Positions 16,696 through 37,962 of a stretch of 37,962 nt of DNA are shown here, one piece after another. Each line of letters opens with the position of its first letter. Position 1 is the stretch's first letter. A program made the position numbers and the translations under genes. Location of the stretch: NCBI GenBank assembly GCA_025356475.1, contig JANXSX010000125.1, forward strand, positions 1-37,962, given 5' to 3'. This DNA is from Isosphaeraceae bacterium (lineage in GTDB: Bacteria; Planctomycetota; Planctomycetia; Isosphaerales; Isosphaeraceae). The notes below the pieces were generated by a model. That model was not told the DNA's origin and ran no database searches. It worked only from the letters and a program-made list of their open reading frames with translations.

Positions 16696-18204
16696 TTAGA
16701 GACTGCGGATTAGCTCGCGGAGTTCATCGGCGGGGAGACAGGCCAGTTCCCTGGGCTCGATCTTGTGTAGCCCTCCCCCATATACACGACCTTCCCTCGT
16801 CAAGCTCTCACGCGTCCGCGACTGGAGCCAAGCAAAAATTGCAGGGCTCAGCTCTGGTGAATCGATCATCCGTTGTCGAAGCGGCTCACGTGGGATCAGC
16901 ATCAGATACGTGTTGGCAGCGATGGCCTCAGACTTGTTCCAGAGGAACCGGAACGGGTTGCCACCGACTTGACCGCGTCCCATATAGGTACATAGGAACG
17001 GGGCCACCTCACGCTGCTCCTGGAGATACCAGGGACTCCGGCGACTCGTGAGATAACCTTGATGGATTGCAAGCGTTTGACCTTCGAAGAGGTAAGCCCG
17101 CAGAGCAGGGGACTCAACCTCTTCAAAGCGAACTCGGCAATCGAGTAAGGCCAACTGGCGAGCGATTGATGGATAACCATCGCTGTCGGATTCGATAATG
17201 TCGTGATGAAGGTTGCGAGCACCGGGCAAGATTGGTCGGAGAACTGAGCCTGGGATGCCCCGATCGAACGCGGCCGTGCGATCGAGGATGAAGAAACGAT
17301 TGGATCCGGTCGCAATGCCGCGCCGGATCGTGAAAAGGTCCCCTAGAGCCGTTTGGGATCGATCGTTCGTGACAATACGCTCATTTGACCATTTGTTAGC
17401 ATGTTTCAATTTACTTACATCAAGATAAATGTCATTCGTCGGCTTAAGGAGTGTCCCTCCCTCAGTGAATCGGATCGAGACCGGTGGCTTCCCGGACTTG
17501 GTGAAAATGACGACGGTGGATGTGACCAGTGCATCGGCGAACTGCGTGTCCGAAGGCAAAAAACGATGGATTCGTAACGTGTTGACATGATCGACAAGGT
17601 AGGTACGCAACGCAGAGCCATAGTTGACATCGAGGAACTCGGAGGGGATCAACCAGGCTGCAACCCCTTCAGGGGACAGCCAGGCATCGGCGAGCAAAAG
17701 GAAGGCGACGTAGAGGCCGGCCAGGCCACTGACGTGAATACTCAAGCGGTCCTGGACGAGCCCTTGCAACCGGGCTTTCTCGTCCTTATCGAGGTGGTGA
17801 TGTCGCACGTAAGGAGGGTTCGCCAGGATCAGGTCGAATCGATCTTTAGCTTCAGGAGGAGCGAGCCTCGTGAAGTCGGCTTCGATCACTTTGAGGCCGG
17901 AGTCACTCCAAAGTTGATCGGCAGCTTGAGCCAGCCGAGGGTCAAGTTCAACCCCGACCGCGACATCTATGGATTCAAAGACGTGTAGACATGATAAATA
18001 AAATGAACCTAAACCAAGTGATGGTTCCAGGAAACGCTTTGGGGTCTGCCCGCACAACTCAGCGACGGCGTGCGTGATTTCGATTGCCAGAGGCAGAGGA
18101 GTTGCGAACTGCCCGAGCTTGTTCCGCTCGGCTGCAGTCCGCTCCCCATCGAGCCGCTTTTGCTCATGGCTCTGGACGATCGATCGCGCTTCGAAGTCCA
18201 TCAT
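16696..18204 (-). CDS. Solitary N6-adenine DNA methyltransferase (TaqI/Eco57I-like)
   Basis: The protein has 502 residues. Motif X is GQFATP (31-36), the SAM-binding motif I EPSLGLGSF (60-68), the acidic loop GVELDPR (84-90) and the catalytic motif IV NPPY (129-132). The C-terminal 250 residues look like a TaqI-type target-recognition domain (RRGIATGSNRFFIL, WNKSEAIAANTYLMLIP). This class methylates adenine in DNA. No nuclease domain (PD-ExK) is seen in the protein or next door, so it may be an orphan epigenetic enzyme or the remnant of a restriction system. The frame extends to TTG 18237, but ATG 18204 lies one base after the stop of the receiver-like gene and is the more natural start. Confidence 0.85.
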   Translation of the reverse strand: MMDFEARSIVQSHEQKRLDGERTAAERNKLGQFATPLPLAIEITHAVAELCGQTPKRFLEPSLGLGSFYLSCLHVFESIDVAVGVELDPRLAQAADQLWSDSGLKVIEADFTRLAPPEAKDRFDLILANPPYVRHHHLDKDEKARLQGLVQDRLSIHVSGLAGLYVAFLLLADAWLSPEGVAAWLIPSEFLDVNYGSALRTYLVDHVNTLRIHRFLPSDTQFADALVTSTVVIFTKSGKPPVSIRFTEGGTLLKPTNDIYLDVSKLKHANKWSNERIVTNDRSQTALGDLFTIRRGIATGSNRFFILDRTAAFDRGIPGSVLRPILPGARNLHHDIIESDSDGYPSIARQLALLDCRVRFEEVESPALRAYLFEGQTLAIHQGYLTSRRSPWYLQEQREVAPFLCTYMGRGQVGGNPFRFLWNKSEAIAANTYLMLIPREPLRQRMIDSPELSPAIFAWLQSRTRESLTREGRVYGGGLHKIEPRELACLPADELRELIRSL

Positions 18205-18205
18205 G

Positions 18206-18607
18206 TCAGGCGAGCTTAGGCCTGAAATAGCGTTCAATCAATGCCGGCAGTTCTGCGGAGAACTTGCTACGGGGCATTACGGGATCGCAGCCTGCGTCCG
18301 CAGCGGCGGCAAGCGCAGCCGTATCGACATGTGAGCCGAAAGCCAGGAACGGAACCGAGTCCCCAGCAAGCTTGCGGTATGCCATGATTGCGGCAGGAGA
18401 AACCAGCTCGCCGGCTGCAAGATCAACGAAGACGATGATCGGGGTCCACTGTTCGATCATGGCCGAGGCCAACGCCACGTTCCCCGCGACCATGACGCGA
18501 TGCCCGAGCTCTCGCGCAGTCCCGGTGACCTTGGACGTAAAGATCATGTCGCGACTGAGCAAAAGCCCGGCAGGACCATCGGGCTTTGGGACCGCGTCGA
18601 ATGTCAT
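18206..18607 (-). CDS. Receiver-like (CheY-fold) protein, degenerate
   Basis: The protein has 133 residues and the alternating strand-helix pattern of a response-regulator receiver: a strand at LLLSRDMIF, a helix at TSKVTGTARELG, a strand ending at IIVFVDLAAGE with Asp62 in the phospho-acceptor position, and SVPFLAFGSHVD then AAADAGCDPVM like the conserved Thr/Lys region. The N-terminal acidic pair and the Lys are not obvious, so phosphorylation is doubtful. There is no output domain. Its ATG overlaps the HAD gene's stop by four bases (ATGA) and its stop is one base from the methyltransferase start, so the three should be co-translated. A non-phosphorylated scaffold or adaptor role is inference. 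Confidence 0.65.
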   Translation of the reverse strand: MTFDAVPKPDGPAGLLLSRDMIFTSKVTGTARELGHRVMVAGNVALASAMIEQWTPIIVFVDLAAGELVSPAAIMAYRKLAGDSVPFLAFGSHVDTAALAAAADAGCDPVMPRSKFSAELPALIERYFRPKLA

Positions 18608-25930: not shown

Positions 25931-28900
25931 TTAGCGTCCGTTAAAGCCCTTGCGTTCCTTGTCGCTGGAAACAGGAAGCTTGAAGTTGGGGCGAGAGTTC
26001 TTCTTCTTGGTGATCTCGTCGGGCTTCGCCTTGAGGGGAAGCGGGCGAGAACCGACCTTTGTGTCCATCATCACCATCGAACCAGGCTCAACATTTTCGC
26101 CGTGGTGAGTGGTGCCGTTGTACAGAAGGGTCCGCCCATTAATTCTCGAGCCCGGCTGGCCGAAGGCAACCTGTTCGGCAATGACCGCATGCTGAGTGCT
26201 AGTACCGTACAAGTAGAACAGGTCGGTTGCCGAGTTATAGGTGATCCGGTCACCTTGCGCTGTGTGGGTGGCATCGCGGGCAACTGCGTTCGTGAAGGCG
26301 GCCATTGTGTAGTGGTTCGGGCCATCAGCCTTGTTCGCCGGCTCACTGATGACACGTAGTTCCTGGGAACTAATCGACATCATCTCACGGTTAACAGTGT
26401 CGGCATCGAGCTCCGCGTATTCATCGGCGACCTTTGCCCGTAGCACTTGGACATCGCCATAGAATTCGGCGTGCGATGGCAGGGCGCTGCCATCGTCGCC
26501 CTGGGCAAACTTGCCGACCATGCGGTCGCGGAAGTCGATCTGGGTCAGAACCATACTTGGCTCTGCGGCTTTCTTACCCTTGGGAGTCGGCTTGGGCTTG
26601 CCGTCTTTACCGAGTACTGCGGCTTCAAGGTCGAAGAGGTAGACCCGTCCCTGACCAATGACCAAGAAATCCCCAGTTCGCTTGTCGTACTGCAAGTCAT
26701 CGCAAACGATGACTTGTTTCTGGATCACCTGATTGGTCTTGGGGTCGCGCTTGACACTGATGGCATAGACGTTCTTCCGCGCGAAGACTTTGGCAAGTTC
26801 AGGCTGTTTCGGGGCTGGCACGTTCGGATCAGCCGGCTTCTTGTTCTTGCCCGCCTCGCTGAACTTGACTGGTCCATCGAGCCACGCATCGATTTCTTCG
26901 GCGTCGATCGTCTGGTACTCGGTCCGAACGCGAACTTGGCCCAGGAAGAAGGCTTTGGCAACGACCGGCCAGCCCTTGGCTCGGGCGTGAACGGTGTCCA
27001 TGCCGAAGAACTGCATCTCTTTCGACCAGCTAATCGTGACGGGAACTTTCTCCGAAGCGAGCTTCTCGATCTCTGGATCGTAATACTCATCGTCGGGCGG
27101 AGCGGCCTCTGCGTTCGCATCGGCGATCGGCTTCTTCCCCTTGGGCCCGAATCCACCGAGCTTGCCGCGCTCTGTCCACTGGGTCAGCCGACCAGGCCCA
27201 CGATCCCAGGCGTAGTTCTTTTCCTGGTCGAGCCCGATCACAGGGCCTTGGATGGCCAGGTCTTCGCTGATTACCTTCGCAGGGCGGGCCGCCGAGGCAT
27301 CTGCGGCGGGTGCGTTCGGGTTCGAGAGTCGCTTGATGGTGGTGATCGGTCTCGATACGCGAGCCCGATTGATGACGACCACGCTATTGGTACCCGAGGC
27401 TTGGCGGTTGACGTCCAGTGCCTCGCCAGTCACGTCGGTGCCGATCTCTTTGCCTTCTTCCGGGTCCTGATGGTAAACTACTTGTTTATCCATGCGGACT
27501 TTATCAATGTCGTAGGCGTTGTCGGTTCCCGCCTTGGGTGTCAGCCTTGCCCAGATCTTGGCGGCCCTGATTGTTGTGGGGGGTTCGACCTTGGGTTTAG
27601 CAGGCTCGGCTGGAGGTTGTTCCTCTGAGGTCGAGGCCGCGACGGTCGCCGGGGCCGGTTCCTGATTCGGTTCGGGCTTAGCCGTGACCTTGCCTGCGGG
27701 AGGGGTCGGGGCGAACTCCGCCGTCAGTTCTTCGTCGGCGTTCATGATCTTGCCAGGCGAGGTCAATACGACGTCGCGAACAGCGTGCAACTGCTTGAGT
27801 TCAAAGGCTTCAGGTGCTTTGGGCTGGCCGAGTTTGGGCTCTGGGGCGTTGGGATCGGCGGCCTTTGGAGTCAGCAAGATGGTGATTACGTCGGCGGCTT
27901 TGAGCTTAGTGGGCTCGGTGCTCTCAGTGGTCGGAGCCGGTGCCGTTTCGTTGAGGGCGGTGGCGACCGGGGCCTTGAGGTCGGACATCTCGGGGCGACC
28001 GTAGAGCCGAATCTCGCGCCAGGTGTTCGTGCCCTCTCCCTGAGTGATCATCGTCAGCCGGTCGTGCCACTCGGCGGTTCTCTGGACCGGCTGATCGCGA
28101 GCGGGGCGTGTTTCGAGCTTGCCGTAACCTTTAACCAGGACCGACTGGGGTCCGTTCATCAAGCCGGGAGTGTCGCGAATGGTAGCATCTGAAGCCCGAA
28201 TGGTGTTGATTGCTCGAGGGGTGTCCTTGGGCGCATCAGGACCTGGAACATCTTCCTTCTCGATCAGGAACGGAGCTGTGGGCGAGTTCGTCGTTAAGCG
28301 GGTCACATCGGGCTGGCCGTTCCCAAGTTTGGTGTGAACCAACCGGTTCACAGCGCGGCCCTTCATCCCTTGCGACTGCGAGTAGAGCAAGACGGCATGG
28401 CCAGTCGCGATCGCTTCCCGCAAGGTCAAGTCCGTAAGTGGTCCGCCGACCGACTCGTCACCATTCTCGGTCTTGGCCACCGTCTTGTCGGCGGGGATCA
28501 GTTCGAGGTCCAGGAAGTCGCAATCGAGGCGGTCGGGTGGCACCGCTGCGGTCAACACCCCACGCAGAACCACAACATTACGCATGAAATGGGCGAAGGT
28601 CGGCTTCGTTCGCTCGGGGGGCCCCTCGACCACGGTCAGCGTGGGAGGAGGGAGCTCAATTTTCATCTCACCAAGCGACTTCAGGTCGAGCGGAGTCTTA
28701 CCACCCTTCGCCTGCTGATCGGGCTTCGCCGTTCCGGACAAGATCCCAGTGTTGCCAACATCGCTGATGACCAGGTGGACGTTGCGATTGAGGAACGCAG
28801 TCTGGGCTCCGGTGAACCCGGACGGCTTACCCCCTGGGGCGACTGGCGGGTTGGGCCGGAGGACAAGTTTCAGACCATCGCCGGTCATCCACAAGTCGCG

Positions 28901-29491
28901 ATCCTGAATGATCACGTTACCGGTGGAAGTGATGAGCAGGGCATCATCATCGTAGATGATGGGATCTTGGGTCGTGACCATCAAGTCATCGGTGCCGTTT
29001 TGCGGAGTACCCTTATCGTCACGAAGCTGGACATGTCCTGCAATCTCGGCGCGAACGACGTGGGCATCGCCCGCGCCTGGCTTGACAATATCAATCGAAC
29101 GGTTGAAGTCCAGGGTCGCTTTATCGCTGGTCGCCGTCTTGAGACTCTTGCCATCCTTCGAGTGCCAGATGATCGCGAACGGCTCGAAGATGAGTTGCTT
29201 GCCATCTTCCGCACGTTTGTAACTTTCGGCATACATCCAGTAACCGCGTTCAGAGACGTAGTATCGAATCGGAGCCCTGACCGTCCAGTGGTCCTTGCCA
29301 AACGAGAGTTCCGCGAGAGCGGTGGCCTCACGCGCACTGGCCGAAAGCTGGTGCGAGCTTCGCGCCTGGATCGGCTTGACGTGCGACACCTGGACCCACG
29401 TCGACGCGACTGCGAAGGCGTGCGTATACCCCAGGTAGGTTCCTACCAGAAGGCTGAACGCGGTAATGGCTTTTACGAGAGTCTTTAACAC
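25931..29491 (-). CDS. Giant LptC/LptA (OstA)-like LPS-transport protein
   Basis: The protein has 1186 residues. A single N-terminal membrane anchor (about 1-30) precedes an LptC-like region (about 60-270: YWMYAESYKRAEDGKQLIF, then NVIIQDRDLWMTGDGLKLVL). A long middle follows, with Pro/Glu/Ala-rich linkers around 540-640 and repeated beta blocks. The last 200 residues look like an LptA/OstA beta-jellyroll (AEFYGDVQVLRA, AQGDRITYNSATDLFYLYG, GRTLLYNGTT). The gene follows kdsD and kdsC in the same direction, the order in which proteobacteria place lptC and lptA. It probably forms all or part of the periplasmic bridge carrying LPS to the outer membrane. It starts at GTG with GGGAG five bases upstream. 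No lptB or lptD is visible next to it. Confidence 0.72.
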   Translation of the reverse strand: MLKTLVKAITAFSLLVGTYLGYTHAFAVASTWVQVSHVKPIQARSSHQLSASAREATALAELSFGKDHWTVRAPIRYYVSERGYWMYAESYKRAEDGKQLIFEPFAIIWHSKDGKSLKTATSDKATLDFNRSIDIVKPGAGDAHVVRAEIAGHVQLRDDKGTPQNGTDDLMVTTQDPIIYDDDALLITSTGNVIIQDRDLWMTGDGLKLVLRPNPPVAPGGKPSGFTGAQTAFLNRNVHLVISDVGNTGILSGTAKPDQQAKGGKTPLDLKSLGEMKIELPPPTLTVVEGPPERTKPTFAHFMRNVVVLRGVLTAAVPPDRLDCDFLDLELIPADKTVAKTENGDESVGGPLTDLTLREAIATGHAVLLYSQSQGMKGRAVNRLVHTKLGNGQPDVTRLTTNSPTAPFLIEKEDVPGPDAPKDTPRAINTIRASDATIRDTPGLMNGPQSVLVKGYGKLETRPARDQPVQRTAEWHDRLTMITQGEGTNTWREIRLYGRPEMSDLKAPVATALNETAPAPTTESTEPTKLKAADVITILLTPKAADPNAPEPKLGQPKAPEAFELKQLHAVRDVVLTSPGKIMNADEELTAEFAPTPPAGKVTAKPEPNQEPAPATVAASTSEEQPPAEPAKPKVEPPTTIRAAKIWARLTPKAGTDNAYDIDKVRMDKQVVYHQDPEEGKEIGTDVTGEALDVNRQASGTNSVVVINRARVSRPITTIKRLSNPNAPAADASAARPAKVISEDLAIQGPVIGLDQEKNYAWDRGPGRLTQWTERGKLGGFGPKGKKPIADANAEAAPPDDEYYDPEIEKLASEKVPVTISWSKEMQFFGMDTVHARAKGWPVVAKAFFLGQVRVRTEYQTIDAEEIDAWLDGPVKFSEAGKNKKPADPNVPAPKQPELAKVFARKNVYAISVKRDPKTNQVIQKQVIVCDDLQYDKRTGDFLVIGQGRVYLFDLEAAVLGKDGKPKPTPKGKKAAEPSMVLTQIDFRDRMVGKFAQGDDGSALPSHAEFYGDVQVLRAKVADEYAELDADTVNREMMSISSQELRVISEPANKADGPNHYTMAAFTNAVARDATHTAQGDRITYNSATDLFYLYGTSTQHAVIAEQVAFGQPGSRINGRTLLYNGTTHHGENVEPGSMVMMDTKVGSRPLPLKAKPDEITKKKNSRPNFKLPVSSDKERKGFNGR

Positions 29492-32993: not shown

Positions 32994-34682
32994 TTACCTG
33001 GGGCTCAACTTTGGCCACTCGATCTCGACCCCTTGCGCCACGAGCTTGTTCTGGAACGACTTGAGCTTGGCAGGAGAGTTGCGGACCTCGCGAGGCACCT
33101 GCTTGGTATCGATACAGTGCGCCGCGAGTGCGCCGGCGGCTTCGCCGATCCCCCACTCGACGGGATGGAGTCGGTAACAACCATTGGTAATATGAGTGAC
33201 GCCTAGATTCTTGCACGCGGGCACAAGGTTCTCGACCCGCTGAGGGATCAGCGATCCGAGCGGAATCTGGAATGGGAGTGAGGAAACATCGATATAGTTA
33301 TCACTTCCCGATGAAGGATGGAGGTCAATTCGATAGCTTCCCACTCCGACCGAATCAGGAAACCGTTCCGCCTCGACATCGTCGCGTCCCAACTTGGCTC
33401 GACGAGCATCGGTGCCAACCATCGACTCGACGACAGTGAACTCAGCCTTGATCCGCCGTGACTCGCGAATATAAGGGTGTTTGGCCAGTCCGTCGGTCGT
33501 TCCAACGACGTCGGGACGGAGTCGCAAACCCTTGTAGCCGGTTCCGCCATCGAGCCGGGGAAACTCTGTCTGAAGCCAGTAGAGCAGGCAGAGCGAGAGT
33601 TGCTTGGCTCTGGCGATGTGCCTGTCGGCCTCTTCAGGAGTAACGCCAATCAGGTTACCCAGCCAGTAATCATTCTGGGGCCAGTTGATCAACGTCATCC
33701 CCCCGGCAAAGGCTCCCTCGGCAAAGTTCTTGGTGTCGAGGATCCGCCGGTAGACCCAGAATCCGGTTCCAGCTCCGGTGGGGTCGAAGGTGAATTTGCG
33801 AGCCCCTAGCGTCTTAGGGTCGGCGGCATCGCCGAACAGCTTGCCTGGCCAAGCAGGGTTGAGCTTGGGGACATACTTGCTCCAGAAATCCCACTCGGCG
33901 GGCTTGTCGATCGTGTGATCCTCGCCAGGAGCATAATCTGCCGCAAAGCAGCATGTGAACGATTGTTGGTTCTCGGGCTGATACACCTCCGGAGCGTTGC
34001 GATCCCCGGTTTCGGACTTGGGTTCGAAGCCGACCACATGTTCTACCCCGGCGAGTGGCAGAACATCCCCCATCTCAGTCGCATCGAGAAAATAGGGGGC
34101 GAGTATGGTTCGGCGATCACCCGAGCGAAGGTCGCGAATCGTGACCGAACGAACTTTGTCCCCGTCCATCTCGGCCCCAACGGGCGCGTGTTCGAGCAGG
34201 ACGAGGAGTTTGCCACTCGACGCATAAGGGGCGAGCATTGCCGTCAAGACGGCCAGGGCAACCTTGGGCTCGTGGCAGAGCTTGGAGACACTGCCGTTAC
34301 CAGGGTTGAGCTTCGGGTTACTTCGAGCTTGCGGGGTCATCGGATAGTGGTCGCGGTAGTACTGGCGAACCCCCCGCCGGAAGGCGAAGTAGGTGGCATT
34401 GGCCCCAAACATTTCGATCCAGGGATGCTCGTCGGGCGGTACCGCTTGTTGGGTGAGTTGGCCGCCGATCCAGTCGGTCGGTTCGGTCATGACGACCGTC
34501 TTTCCCGCCCGAAGCGCTGCCAACGCCGCCGCCACCCCACCGAGTCCTCCACCGAGAATCGCGACATCCGTCGTGATCTCCCTCGAGATGAGACGGGCGG
34601 AAGCCGACCCGAGTCCCGAACTCGCCAGCAAGAGGCTAGAGATTCCGTAGCCGCACCCTTCGAGAAATTGTCGGCGCTGCAT
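32994..34682 (-). CDS. Secreted FAD-dependent oxidoreductase
   Basis: The protein has 562 residues. The N terminus has a Tat-like signal (RRQFLEGCGYG, then SSLLLASSGLGSASA). The dinucleotide-binding motif follows at about 42-60 (DVAILGGGLGGVAAALAALRAGK), with TDWIGGQLTQQ and later PYFLDATEMGDVLPLAG, typical of the FAD_oxidored family (PF12831), common in planctomycetes and often tied to sugar catabolism. The C-terminal block ENLVPACKNLGVTHITNGCYRLHPVEWGIGE is the second conserved FAD segment. The physiological substrate is unknown. It starts at ATG 34682 and is divergent from the SAM methyltransferase. Confidence 0.88.
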   Translation of the reverse strand: MQRRQFLEGCGYGISSLLLASSGLGSASARLISREITTDVAILGGGLGGVAAALAALRAGKTVVMTEPTDWIGGQLTQQAVPPDEHPWIEMFGANATYFAFRRGVRQYYRDHYPMTPQARSNPKLNPGNGSVSKLCHEPKVALAVLTAMLAPYASSGKLLVLLEHAPVGAEMDGDKVRSVTIRDLRSGDRRTILAPYFLDATEMGDVLPLAGVEHVVGFEPKSETGDRNAPEVYQPENQQSFTCCFAADYAPGEDHTIDKPAEWDFWSKYVPKLNPAWPGKLFGDAADPKTLGARKFTFDPTGAGTGFWVYRRILDTKNFAEGAFAGGMTLINWPQNDYWLGNLIGVTPEEADRHIARAKQLSLCLLYWLQTEFPRLDGGTGYKGLRLRPDVVGTTDGLAKHPYIRESRRIKAEFTVVESMVGTDARRAKLGRDDVEAERFPDSVGVGSYRIDLHPSSGSDNYIDVSSLPFQIPLGSLIPQRVENLVPACKNLGVTHITNGCYRLHPVEWGIGEAAGALAAHCIDTKQVPREVRNSPAKLKSFQNKLVAQGVEIEWPKLSPR

Positions 34683-36123: not shown

Positions 36124-36205
36124 GCGAGAGTGGCGGAACTGGCAGACGCACTGGATTTAGGTTCCAGCGCCGCAAGGCTTGAGGGTTCGACTCCCTCCTC
36201 TCGCA
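36124..36205 (+). tRNA. tRNA-Leu (anticodon UAG)
   Basis: The cloverleaf is complete. The acceptor stem GCGAGAG (36124-36130) pairs with CTCTCGC (36198-36204), and the discriminator base is A. The D arm is GCG/CGC. The anticodon stem CTGGA/TCCAG holds the loop TTTAGGT with anticodon TAG at 36158-36160. A class II variable arm (CGCC GCAA GGC) and the T arm GAGGG/CCCTC with loop TTCGACT follow. CCA is not encoded. The next base is the stop codon of a gene on the opposite strand, an unusually tight junction. It reads CUA and CUG leucine codons. Confidence 0.97.
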
Positions 36206-36857
36206 TTATTTCGACAGTCCAATCGATCGCAAGAATTTGTCGAGGCTCTTCGATCCCCGTTGCCCCTTGCGAGCTTCGGCAAAATTGACCTGGGCAAAGA
36301 GTTTGGGGCCGTGGAGGGTCTCTCGGTACGCTTCGCCAAGGTACGCGGAGAGCAATCCTTTCAGATCATTTCGACCCTCGAAGCAGTGAGGGTAATTCTT
36401 GGGTGACTGAGGCAGGTGCTTCCTACGGAGCCCTTCGGCATCGGCCAGGATCCAGGCTTCGAACATCCGGTCAGCCACGACCACGATGAGTTCGACATCG
36501 GTAAGCTCGTGCTTGGCGAGTTGTAGATCTTTTTGGATTCGAGCCAAAATCTTAGCGGCGAAATCACCCGGACATTCGGAACGTTCCTCACGATCGAGGC
36601 AGAGAATGATCTTCCGGTAGCCGCGTCCCAAGTGGATCTTGAATTTGCTGAGTGCTCGATTCGCAATCCCTTGAGGGCTCATGCATCCCCCGAAACCGCC
36701 GACATTCTCGGCATGTATGGGGGGACATTCACCCTTGAAAATAGTCGCGAGCTCGGGAAAGGGCGAAGAACTCGGCCTCACCTTCAACGATCAACCCGAT
36801 CTTCGGACCAGGCGGTTTTCTTCGGTTTCCGCTGCGGGTTGCCTTGATGTTGGTCAT
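36206..36857 (-). pseudogene. TOPRIM-like DUF4276 protein, frameshifted
   Basis: A start at ATG 36857 overlaps the upstream ATPase stop by four bases (ATGA). The N terminus reads KIGLIVEGEAEFFAL, the VEGxxE signature of TOPRIM domains (residues 24-29). A single extra T in the run near 36755-36763 then shifts the frame. After it, the sequence continues as PELATIFKGECPPI, GYRKIILCLDREER, then VVVADRMFEAWILADAE and the C-terminal NFAEARKGQRGSKSLDKFLR, as in DUF4276 proteins. Repaired, it would have about 216 residues. Uncorrected, the first frame stops at 36729-36731. TOPRIM partners of AAA ATPases act as nucleases in defence systems such as PARIS and Gabija; function here is inferred. A sequencing error must be excluded. 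Confidence 0.75.
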
Positions 36858-37962
36858 GGAAGCGGGCTCGGAATCCCTCCGAGACCACCCCCCATCCAAA
36901 CTTCGCCCAATCGTTCTCCAGAATCATTCAAAATCTGGCTGAGGGCCGTGTCACGCTCGACTGCCGGAGTGATGGTGGTCCCTCGCGTCAGGTCGTTCTC
37001 AACGATATAGAGCGATGCGGGATCACGGATTGCATTCACGACCACAGGCGAGTGCGTTGTAATGATGATGGGCTGAGATCGTTCCGAGAGTTTGTCTTGG
37101 ATCAGATTCATAATTTCATGAACGGCCCAAGGATGGAGTGCGTTTTCGGGTTCTTCAATCACCAAGATTGAGTCAGGAGAACTGGATTCGATCGCAATCA
37201 GAAGCGCAATCGCGTGCATCATCCCGTCAGATACGCTGGATTCGCCGAGGAGTGTCTTGACACCCTTGAGTCGAAAGAATAGAGCGACGCGACCGGCTGC
37301 CAAAGGCTCGGCCTTGATTTCCGAGATCTGAGGATAGATTGTTCCTAAGGCCACGGTAACATTCTTTAAGACCTCTGGACTTTCTGTTTGAAGTCTCCGC
37401 ACAGCGAGTGATAACCCAAGGCCATGCGAGTCAAAGAAGCCATGGATAGAACTCGGGGTGGGTCCAAATTCGTTGCGAAGTGACTGCAAGTCGAATCGAT
37501 ATCGGTTGGAGTATGGGAAAAATGATGAGTAAAAACGTCTTTCCAGATAAAAGTTGTCGACTCCCTGACTTGAGGATGGCAGTGTATTAAATAGCCTCCT
37601 GGTCTCCTCGCTCATTTCCGCCAGTCTCTCGAGATACTTCCCTTTCCCCGGAAAAATTTCGCGACCGCTCGTGTCAACCCACCTCAACTTCATCGAACCC
37701 CGAGATTGATCTGAAATTGAGATTTCTAGCGATGTGTTCAATGAACTTGGTTTATGGATGAGCCCCTTATAATGTCATTCTTATTCCAGCTTGAAGTTCG
37801 ACGCTCTCGCTCTCCCCTGGAAAGTTGATCTGTCCAGACGCTTTGGCGAAGAACTCAATTTGCGGTGTCCCATGGGACGAACCTCTGCGGACCACTTGCT
37901 CATAGTCGATCAAATCGGCTTCTGGCCCTTCCCATAGACTTTTGATCAGTTCCAAGTACAGT
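36854..37962 (-). pseudogene. AAA ATPase (AAA_21/OLD-like), frameshifted and cut by the window edge
   Basis: The visible part is the C-terminal two thirds of a P-loop ATPase; the Walker A end lies beyond the window. It enters in one frame (LYLELIKSLWEGPEADLIDY) that stops at 37767. The other frame opens only at 37774 and continues as HYKGLIHKPSSLNTSLEI to 36854, so the shift lies within about ten bases (37767-37777) and skipping one base restores a single protein. It has the signature-like SSVSDGMMHAIALLIAIE, Walker B DSILVIEEPENALHP and the switch IIITTHSPVVV, all typical of OLD/AAA_21 ATPases. It is translationally coupled to the TOPRIM gene. Frameshift, phase switch or sequence error are all possible. 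Confidence 0.78.

What the first reader, a model, noticed from the sequence alone, without database searches (positions are those of the whole stretch)
36124..37962. AAA ATPase plus TOPRIM cassette abutting the 3' end of a tRNA-Leu
The tRNA's last base (36205) is directly followed by the stop codon of the DUF4276/TOPRIM gene on the other strand. tRNA 3' ends are classic integration sites, and the cassette (ATPase with VIEEPENALHP and THSP motifs, coupled by ATGA to a protein with VEGEAE) has the split-gene logic of PARIS (AriA/AriB) and the fused logic of Gabija/OLD. A DUF4276 version of this pair is less well described and may be a distinct anti-phage module carried by an island at this tRNA.
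Basis: partly seen in the sequence, partly recalled or inferred. Interest (0 to 1): 0.65.

Follow-up and report, generated by a model that had tools for sequence, protein, structure and literature searches.

The report
Broken OLD-like defence pair beside tRNA-Leu
Next to a tRNA gene that serves as a docking site for mobile DNA in related bacteria lies a damaged copy of a two-gene ATPase-plus-nuclease module, of a type already catalogued as a candidate anti-virus system, so it is mostly ordinary although the docking site is nicely documented.

Summary
A tRNA-Leu(UAG) (36124-36205, +) is followed without a gap by the stop codon of a DUF4276 gene on the other strand, which overlaps by ATGA (36854-36857) with an ABC/AAA_21 ATPase. 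As assembled, each gene has one frameshift (about 36755-36763 and 37768-37777), and the contig ends before the ATPase's Walker A motif; 20 other window genes show no break. By homology the pair is a divergent HEC-01 (HEC-01A 3.7e-30, HEC-01B 4.3e-17 in PADLOC-DB), an already catalogued candidate defence pair, not PARIS or Gabija. In the window's own genome no second tRNA end exists in the assembly, no integrase is on the contig, and the far flank is missing, so the island itself is inferred. Relatives of the pair are not enriched next to known defence genes. Verdict: likely a decaying HEC-01 cargo at a recurrent island site; new member of a known kind.

The parts
36124..36205 (+). tRNA-Leu(UAG), recurrent island attachment site in the family
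   Evidence: ARAGORN; 3'-half copies, integrase and empty/occupied comparison in relatives
36153..36205 (+). part of the tRNA (positions 30-82, from the anticodon loop to the 3' end) that is duplicated as the direct repeat in relatives; no second copy in this assembly
36206..36857 (-). HEC-01B-like DUF4276 (TOPRIM-type) gene; stop 36206-36208, start ATG 36855-36857; one frameshift at about 36755-36763
36854..36857 (-). ATGA overlap of ATPase stop and DUF4276 start
   Evidence: sequence; same -4 overlap in 9 of 15 related pairs
36854..37962 (-). HEC-01A-like ABC/AAA_21 ATPase gene, N-terminus and Walker A beyond the contig end; signature, Walker B and H-loop present; one frameshift at 37768-37777
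32994..34682 (-). FAD-dependent oxidoreductase gene that lies 5' of the same tRNA in many relatives (conserved side of the site)

Best explanation
The cassette is a degraded, divergent HEC-01 module. An OLD/PARIS-type ABC ATPase sensor and a separate DUF4276 TOPRIM nuclease, translationally coupled, would in intact form be held inactive together until an infection signal releases metal-dependent nucleic-acid cleavage. It probably arrived as cargo of an element that integrated into the 3' half of tRNA-Leu(UAG), as in other genera of the family, and has since lost both reading frames. Shown: homology, gene order, frameshifts as assembled, use of this tRNA as an integration site in relatives, absence of the cassette from the site in relatives. 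Inferred: that this copy sits in an integrated element; that the frameshifts are real rather than contig-end errors; the trigger/nuclease mechanism, taken from OLD and PARIS.
For: HEC-01A/B matches. Related pairs have the -4 overlap in 9 of 15 loci, and profiles built without the window still find both genes (3.3e-24 and 3.8e-18). Retained active-site positions: E of VEGEAE, D65 and E110/W112 of DUF4276; signature, Walker B and H-loop of the ATPase. The modelled fold of an intact DUF4276 relative (pLDDT 91.9) matches OLD C-terminal domains at Z 7.4-8.0 over 162-170 residues. Twenty other window proteins scanned; none shows a family match broken by a frameshift. If two frameshifts fell at random over 17 uninterrupted window genes (21.4 kb) plus the cassette (1.76 kb), both would be in the cassette with p about 0.006. 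G+C 0.519 against a mean of 0.579, sd 0.018. tRNA as att site.
Against: No second tRNA 3' end in the own assembly even at E 10 and no integrase on the contig. Related pairs in 20-kb loci show no integrase and tRNA genes in only one of 17 loci, so HEC-01 here is not generally tRNA-island cargo. In relatives without a visible insertion, ordinary genes also end 1-11 bp after this tRNA, so the abutment alone proves nothing. The frameshifts lie near a contig end, where assembly errors are likelier. The TOPRIM fold match is tied with Argonaute MID domains.
Confidence: 0.6

Rival explanations
1. The pair is an intact, functional HEC-01 system; the two frameshifts and the truncation are errors at a poorly covered contig end.
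For: Conserved catalytic positions are kept in both proteins despite the frameshifts; both shifts lie in the last 1.2 kb of the contig.
Against: Two single-base shifts in 1.76 kb against none seen in about 21 kb of other genes; neither lies in a long homopolymer.
Confidence: 0.27
2. The pair is ordinary chromosomal sequence next to a tRNA, moved there by rearrangement, not cargo of an element integrated at this tRNA.
For: No second tRNA end and no integrase in reach; the 3' side of this tRNA differs between most genera anyway; other HEC-01 pairs sit among housekeeping genes.
Against: This tRNA demonstrably takes up islands in at least two other genera; the cassette is the most AT-rich stretch of the window; its 5' side is the conserved one.
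Confidence: 0.35
3. It is a PARIS (AriA/AriB) or Gabija/OLD system.
For: ABC ATPase plus TOPRIM, split as in PARIS; AriA profile hit at 1.2e-19.
Against: HEC-01A scores far better; no AriB profile matches the second gene, only HEC-01B; it is not fused as in OLD/GajA.
Confidence: 0.03

Closest known systems
HEC-01 (Hma-embedded candidate 01, HEC-01A + HEC-01B, PADLOC-DB 2.0)
   Same: Both components match, same order, same strand, translational overlap
   Different: Divergent (19-30% identity of the DUF4276 fragment to family relatives), frameshifted in both genes, ATPase truncated at the contig end
PARIS (AriA/AriB), proposed class 4 OLD
   Same: Split ABC ATPase and TOPRIM nuclease (PMC10568477; AriB is a two-metal TOPRIM tRNA nuclease, PMC12409363)
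   Different: Second gene is DUF4276/HEC-01B and matches no AriB model
OLD class 1 / GajA of Gabija (class 2 OLD)
   Same: ABC ATPase plus TOPRIM; ATPase profile hits GajA and OLD structures, TOPRIM fold resembles OLD C-terminal domains
   Different: Two genes, no fusion; no GajB helicase on the visible side
tRNA-anchored genomic islands with tyrosine integrases
   Same: tRNA 3' end; in relatives direct repeat from the anticodon loop to the 3' end, integrase abutting the tRNA, empty site
   Different: Second repeat and integrase not found for the window's own copy

Membership tests
HEC-01 | ATPase matching HEC-01A | tested here: met
   PDLC04182 3.7e-30; hit in the own-genome search 2.5e-29
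HEC-01 | DUF4276 protein matching HEC-01B | tested here: met
   PDLC04196 4.3e-17; Pfam DUF4276 7.6e-7, 0.2 bits under its cut-off
HEC-01 | the two genes adjacent, same strand, ATPase first | tested here: met
   ATGA overlap 36854-36857; same order in 15 of 16 related loci
functional HEC-01 system | both reading frames open | tested here: not met
   one frameshift in each gene as assembled; sequencing error not excluded
functional HEC-01 system | complete ATPase with Walker A | not testable with these tools
   the contig ends before it
functional HEC-01 system | protection from phage | not testable with these tools
   needs an assay
PARIS | AriB partner | tested here: not met
   only HEC-01B models match the second protein
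Gabija / fused OLD | ATPase and TOPRIM in one polypeptide | tested here: not met
   two genes with a stop/start overlap
tRNA-anchored island (own copy) | second copy of the tRNA 3' end at the far side | tested here: inconclusive
   none in the assembly, but the far side is beyond the contig end
tRNA-anchored island (own copy) | integrase | tested here: inconclusive
   none on this contig; six integrase genes elsewhere in the genome, linkage unknown
tRNA-anchored island (own copy) | atypical composition | tested here: met
   lowest G+C of all equal-length stretches of the window
tRNA-anchored island (own copy) | cassette absent from the site in relatives | tested here: met
   no hit within 10 kb of the orthologous tRNA in 18 family genomes, nor near the oxidoreductase orthologue in 80 public loci; no same-genus genome was available
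tRNA-anchored island (this tRNA in relatives) | direct repeat, integrase, empty versus occupied site | tested here: met
   G023, G033, G013 versus G036, G006
defence-island module | enrichment next to known defence genes | tested here: not met
   91 neighbours of pairs against 91 control proteins: no excess of PADLOC hits at 1e-15

The most novel reading that the evidence does not exclude
ATPase-DUF4276 pairs are an independently diversified split-OLD class in which the DUF4276 subunit is a releasable RNA (perhaps tRNA) nuclease, carried in planctomycetes both as stable chromosomal genes and, as here, as island cargo at tRNA-Leu(UAG).
Probability: 0.15. Interest if true: 0.5.

Novelty: new member of a known kind. 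Interest (0 to 1): 0.3.

Why it matters
It removes a claim of a new module (the pair is HEC-01), and it establishes from sequence comparison that tRNA-Leu(UAG) is a recurrent island attachment site in this planctomycete family, with an occupied/empty pair of genomes. That gives a concrete place to look for mobile cargo in a group with little defence work. HEC-01 itself is a computational candidate; several related HECs, including HEC-06, are reported to have shown antiviral activity (PMC12988326), so intact planctomycete copies are worth an assay.

Tried and rejected
Extending the contig: the window is the whole contig and no other contig was found to overlap it. Finding the missing ATPase N-terminus elsewhere: the own-genome HEC-01A search gave no N-terminal fragment that I could join to this gene. 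Finding the far flank by rsmD, which borders the islands in genus g6: in the own genome rsmD lies inside a large contig. Plasmids, phages and viral contigs: no match of the DUF4276 fragment. Fold of the frameshifted window fragment: pLDDT 70, no useful match. Foldseek with the intact relative gave nothing below 1e-3; VIA-align listed OLD TOPRIM domains among tied rows. PDB sequence search with the DUF4276 profile: nothing credible. Literature: no paper in the open library names DUF4276. No same-genus genome was held, so the direct empty-site test for the window itself could not be made.

Full report
1. What is there. The window is a complete 37,962-base contig (C181) of a 5.9-Mb, 232-contig genome; the closest public relatives of its oxidoreductase gene are Isosphaeraceae and other Planctomycetales MAGs. 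ARAGORN finds one tRNA, tRNA-Leu at 36124-36205. On the minus strand, the stop codon of a DUF4276 gene starts at 36206, and the ATPase gene overlaps the DUF4276 start by ATGA at 36854-36857.

2. State of the genes. No single frame reads through either gene. In the DUF4276 gene the frame changes between VEGEAEFFAL and PELATIF (about 36755-36763), in the ATPase between GIRMTL and KGLIHKP (37768-37777). The ATPase N-terminus, with Walker A, is off the contig. I scanned 20 other window proteins with Pfam: most have near-complete domain matches, four have no Pfam match, and none shows a family match broken between frames. With 17 uninterrupted window genes as background, both frameshifts falling in the cassette by chance has p about 0.006. 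Decay is therefore the favoured reading, but contig-end error cannot be excluded without reads.

3. What family. Pfam: AAA_21 7e-18; DUF4276 7.6e-7. PADLOC-DB: HEC-01A 3.7e-30 (best non-HEC model, AriA, 1.2e-19), and HEC-01B 4.3e-17 as the only kind of match for the second gene. NCBIfam: MAD3 7.2e-16, far below its cut-off. So the pair is a HEC-01 by homology and gene order. In the family, HEC-01B is patchy, 16 of 45 genomes. The own genome carries further HEC-01A-like genes, among them one with an excellent match on C142 (8.6e-129) beside a DUF4276 gene, and pairs on C1 and C229. The window's DUF4276 protein is divergent: six of 392 phylum genomes, the own one included, have a match, the others at 27-42% identity.

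4. Anatomy of related pairs. In 15 of 16 loci an ATPase ORF precedes DUF4276; in 9 of them the overlap is exactly 4 bases. Invariant DUF4276 positions include D65, E110 and W112 of the window fragment; the first TOPRIM glutamate is in VEGEAE. The window ATPase keeps SVSDG (signature), ILVIEEPENALHP (Walker B) and THSP (H-loop). The ATPase profile hits PtuA, OLD, GajA, retron ATPases and AriA among solved structures. An AlphaFold2 model of an intact DUF4276 relative (pLDDT 91.9) aligns with OLD C-terminal TOPRIM domains at Z 7.4-8.0 over 162-170 residues, but Argonaute MID domains score the same over shorter stretches, so this is supportive only.

5. The tRNA. In relatives the oxidoreductase at window 32994-34682 lies directly 5' of the same tRNA in 10 of 18 loci and about 7 kb away in one more, and public genomes L110, L112, L113, L115 and L116 show the same arrangement. 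The 3' side differs between most genera. Four family genomes carry a second copy of exactly the 3' part of this tRNA, positions 26/30 to 82. In G023 the copy is 57 bp, 98% identical to its own tRNA, 21 kb away, and a tyrosine integrase (Phage_integrase 1.9e-12) abuts the tRNA, with transposases between. In G033, of the same genus, the same flanks (oxidoreductase and tRNA on one side, PTS EIIA and rsmD on the other) enclose a different 4-kb insert with a 56-bp, 100% identical copy. In G013 the left flank and tRNA (C187) and the 3'-half copy with the right flank (C134) are together colinear with the uninterrupted site of G036 (80-90% identity over several kb on either side), an occupied/empty pair. 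So the site is genuine.

6. The own copy. The cassette is absent within 10 kb of this tRNA in all 18 relatives, has the lowest G+C of the window, and begins exactly where relatives' inserts begin. But no second tRNA end is in the own assembly and no integrase is on the contig. Island origin is thus likely, not shown.

7. Defence context. Of 91 proteins next to HEC-01 pairs and 91 control proteins near the tRNA, the numbers with PADLOC matches at 1e-15 are similarly few and partly generic kinases and helicases; neighbours are mostly housekeeping. No integrase was seen in the HEC-01 loci of relatives.

8. Mechanism. By analogy with OLD and PARIS (PMC10568477, PMC12409363, PMC12796447) the ATPase would sense infection and hold or license the TOPRIM nuclease, which cleaves nucleic acid by a two-metal mechanism. 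For HEC-01 neither trigger nor substrate is known to me; this step is inference. A caution from the same literature: an archaeal OLD-family protein, Cran1, works in the cell cycle and showed no antiviral effect (PMC12796447), so homology to OLD is not proof of defence.

9. Verdict. Observation confirmed; interpretation partly supported; new member of a known kind; interest 0.3, mainly for the well-documented attachment site.

Noticed in passing
G013:C187/C134 (L027, L222) versus G036 (L028): Occupied and empty versions of the tRNA-Leu(UAG) site in one genus, with a 54-bp direct repeat; island content only partly assembled and no HEC-01 pair in the visible parts.
   Followed up: partly
G023:C1:1910983-1932187 (L221, L041): A 21-kb island with tyrosine integrase, several transposases and an IrrE/M78-like peptidase gene followed by a 213-aa gene at the same tRNA.
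   Followed up: partly
window 16696-18237 (-): A solitary Eco57I-type N6 adenine methyltransferase next to nusB, with no restriction partner recognised.
   Followed up: no
window 25931-29491 (-): A 1186-aa ORF without any Pfam match.
   Followed up: no
G000:C142, C1, C229, C228, C55, C151: The genome carries several further HEC-01A-like ATPases, at least three of them paired with DUF4276/HEC-01B-like genes, a large set for one genome.
   Followed up: partly
window 32994-34682 and tRNA 36124-36205: Synteny of the FAD-dependent oxidoreductase and tRNA-Leu(UAG) is conserved across many genera of the family.
   Followed up: yes
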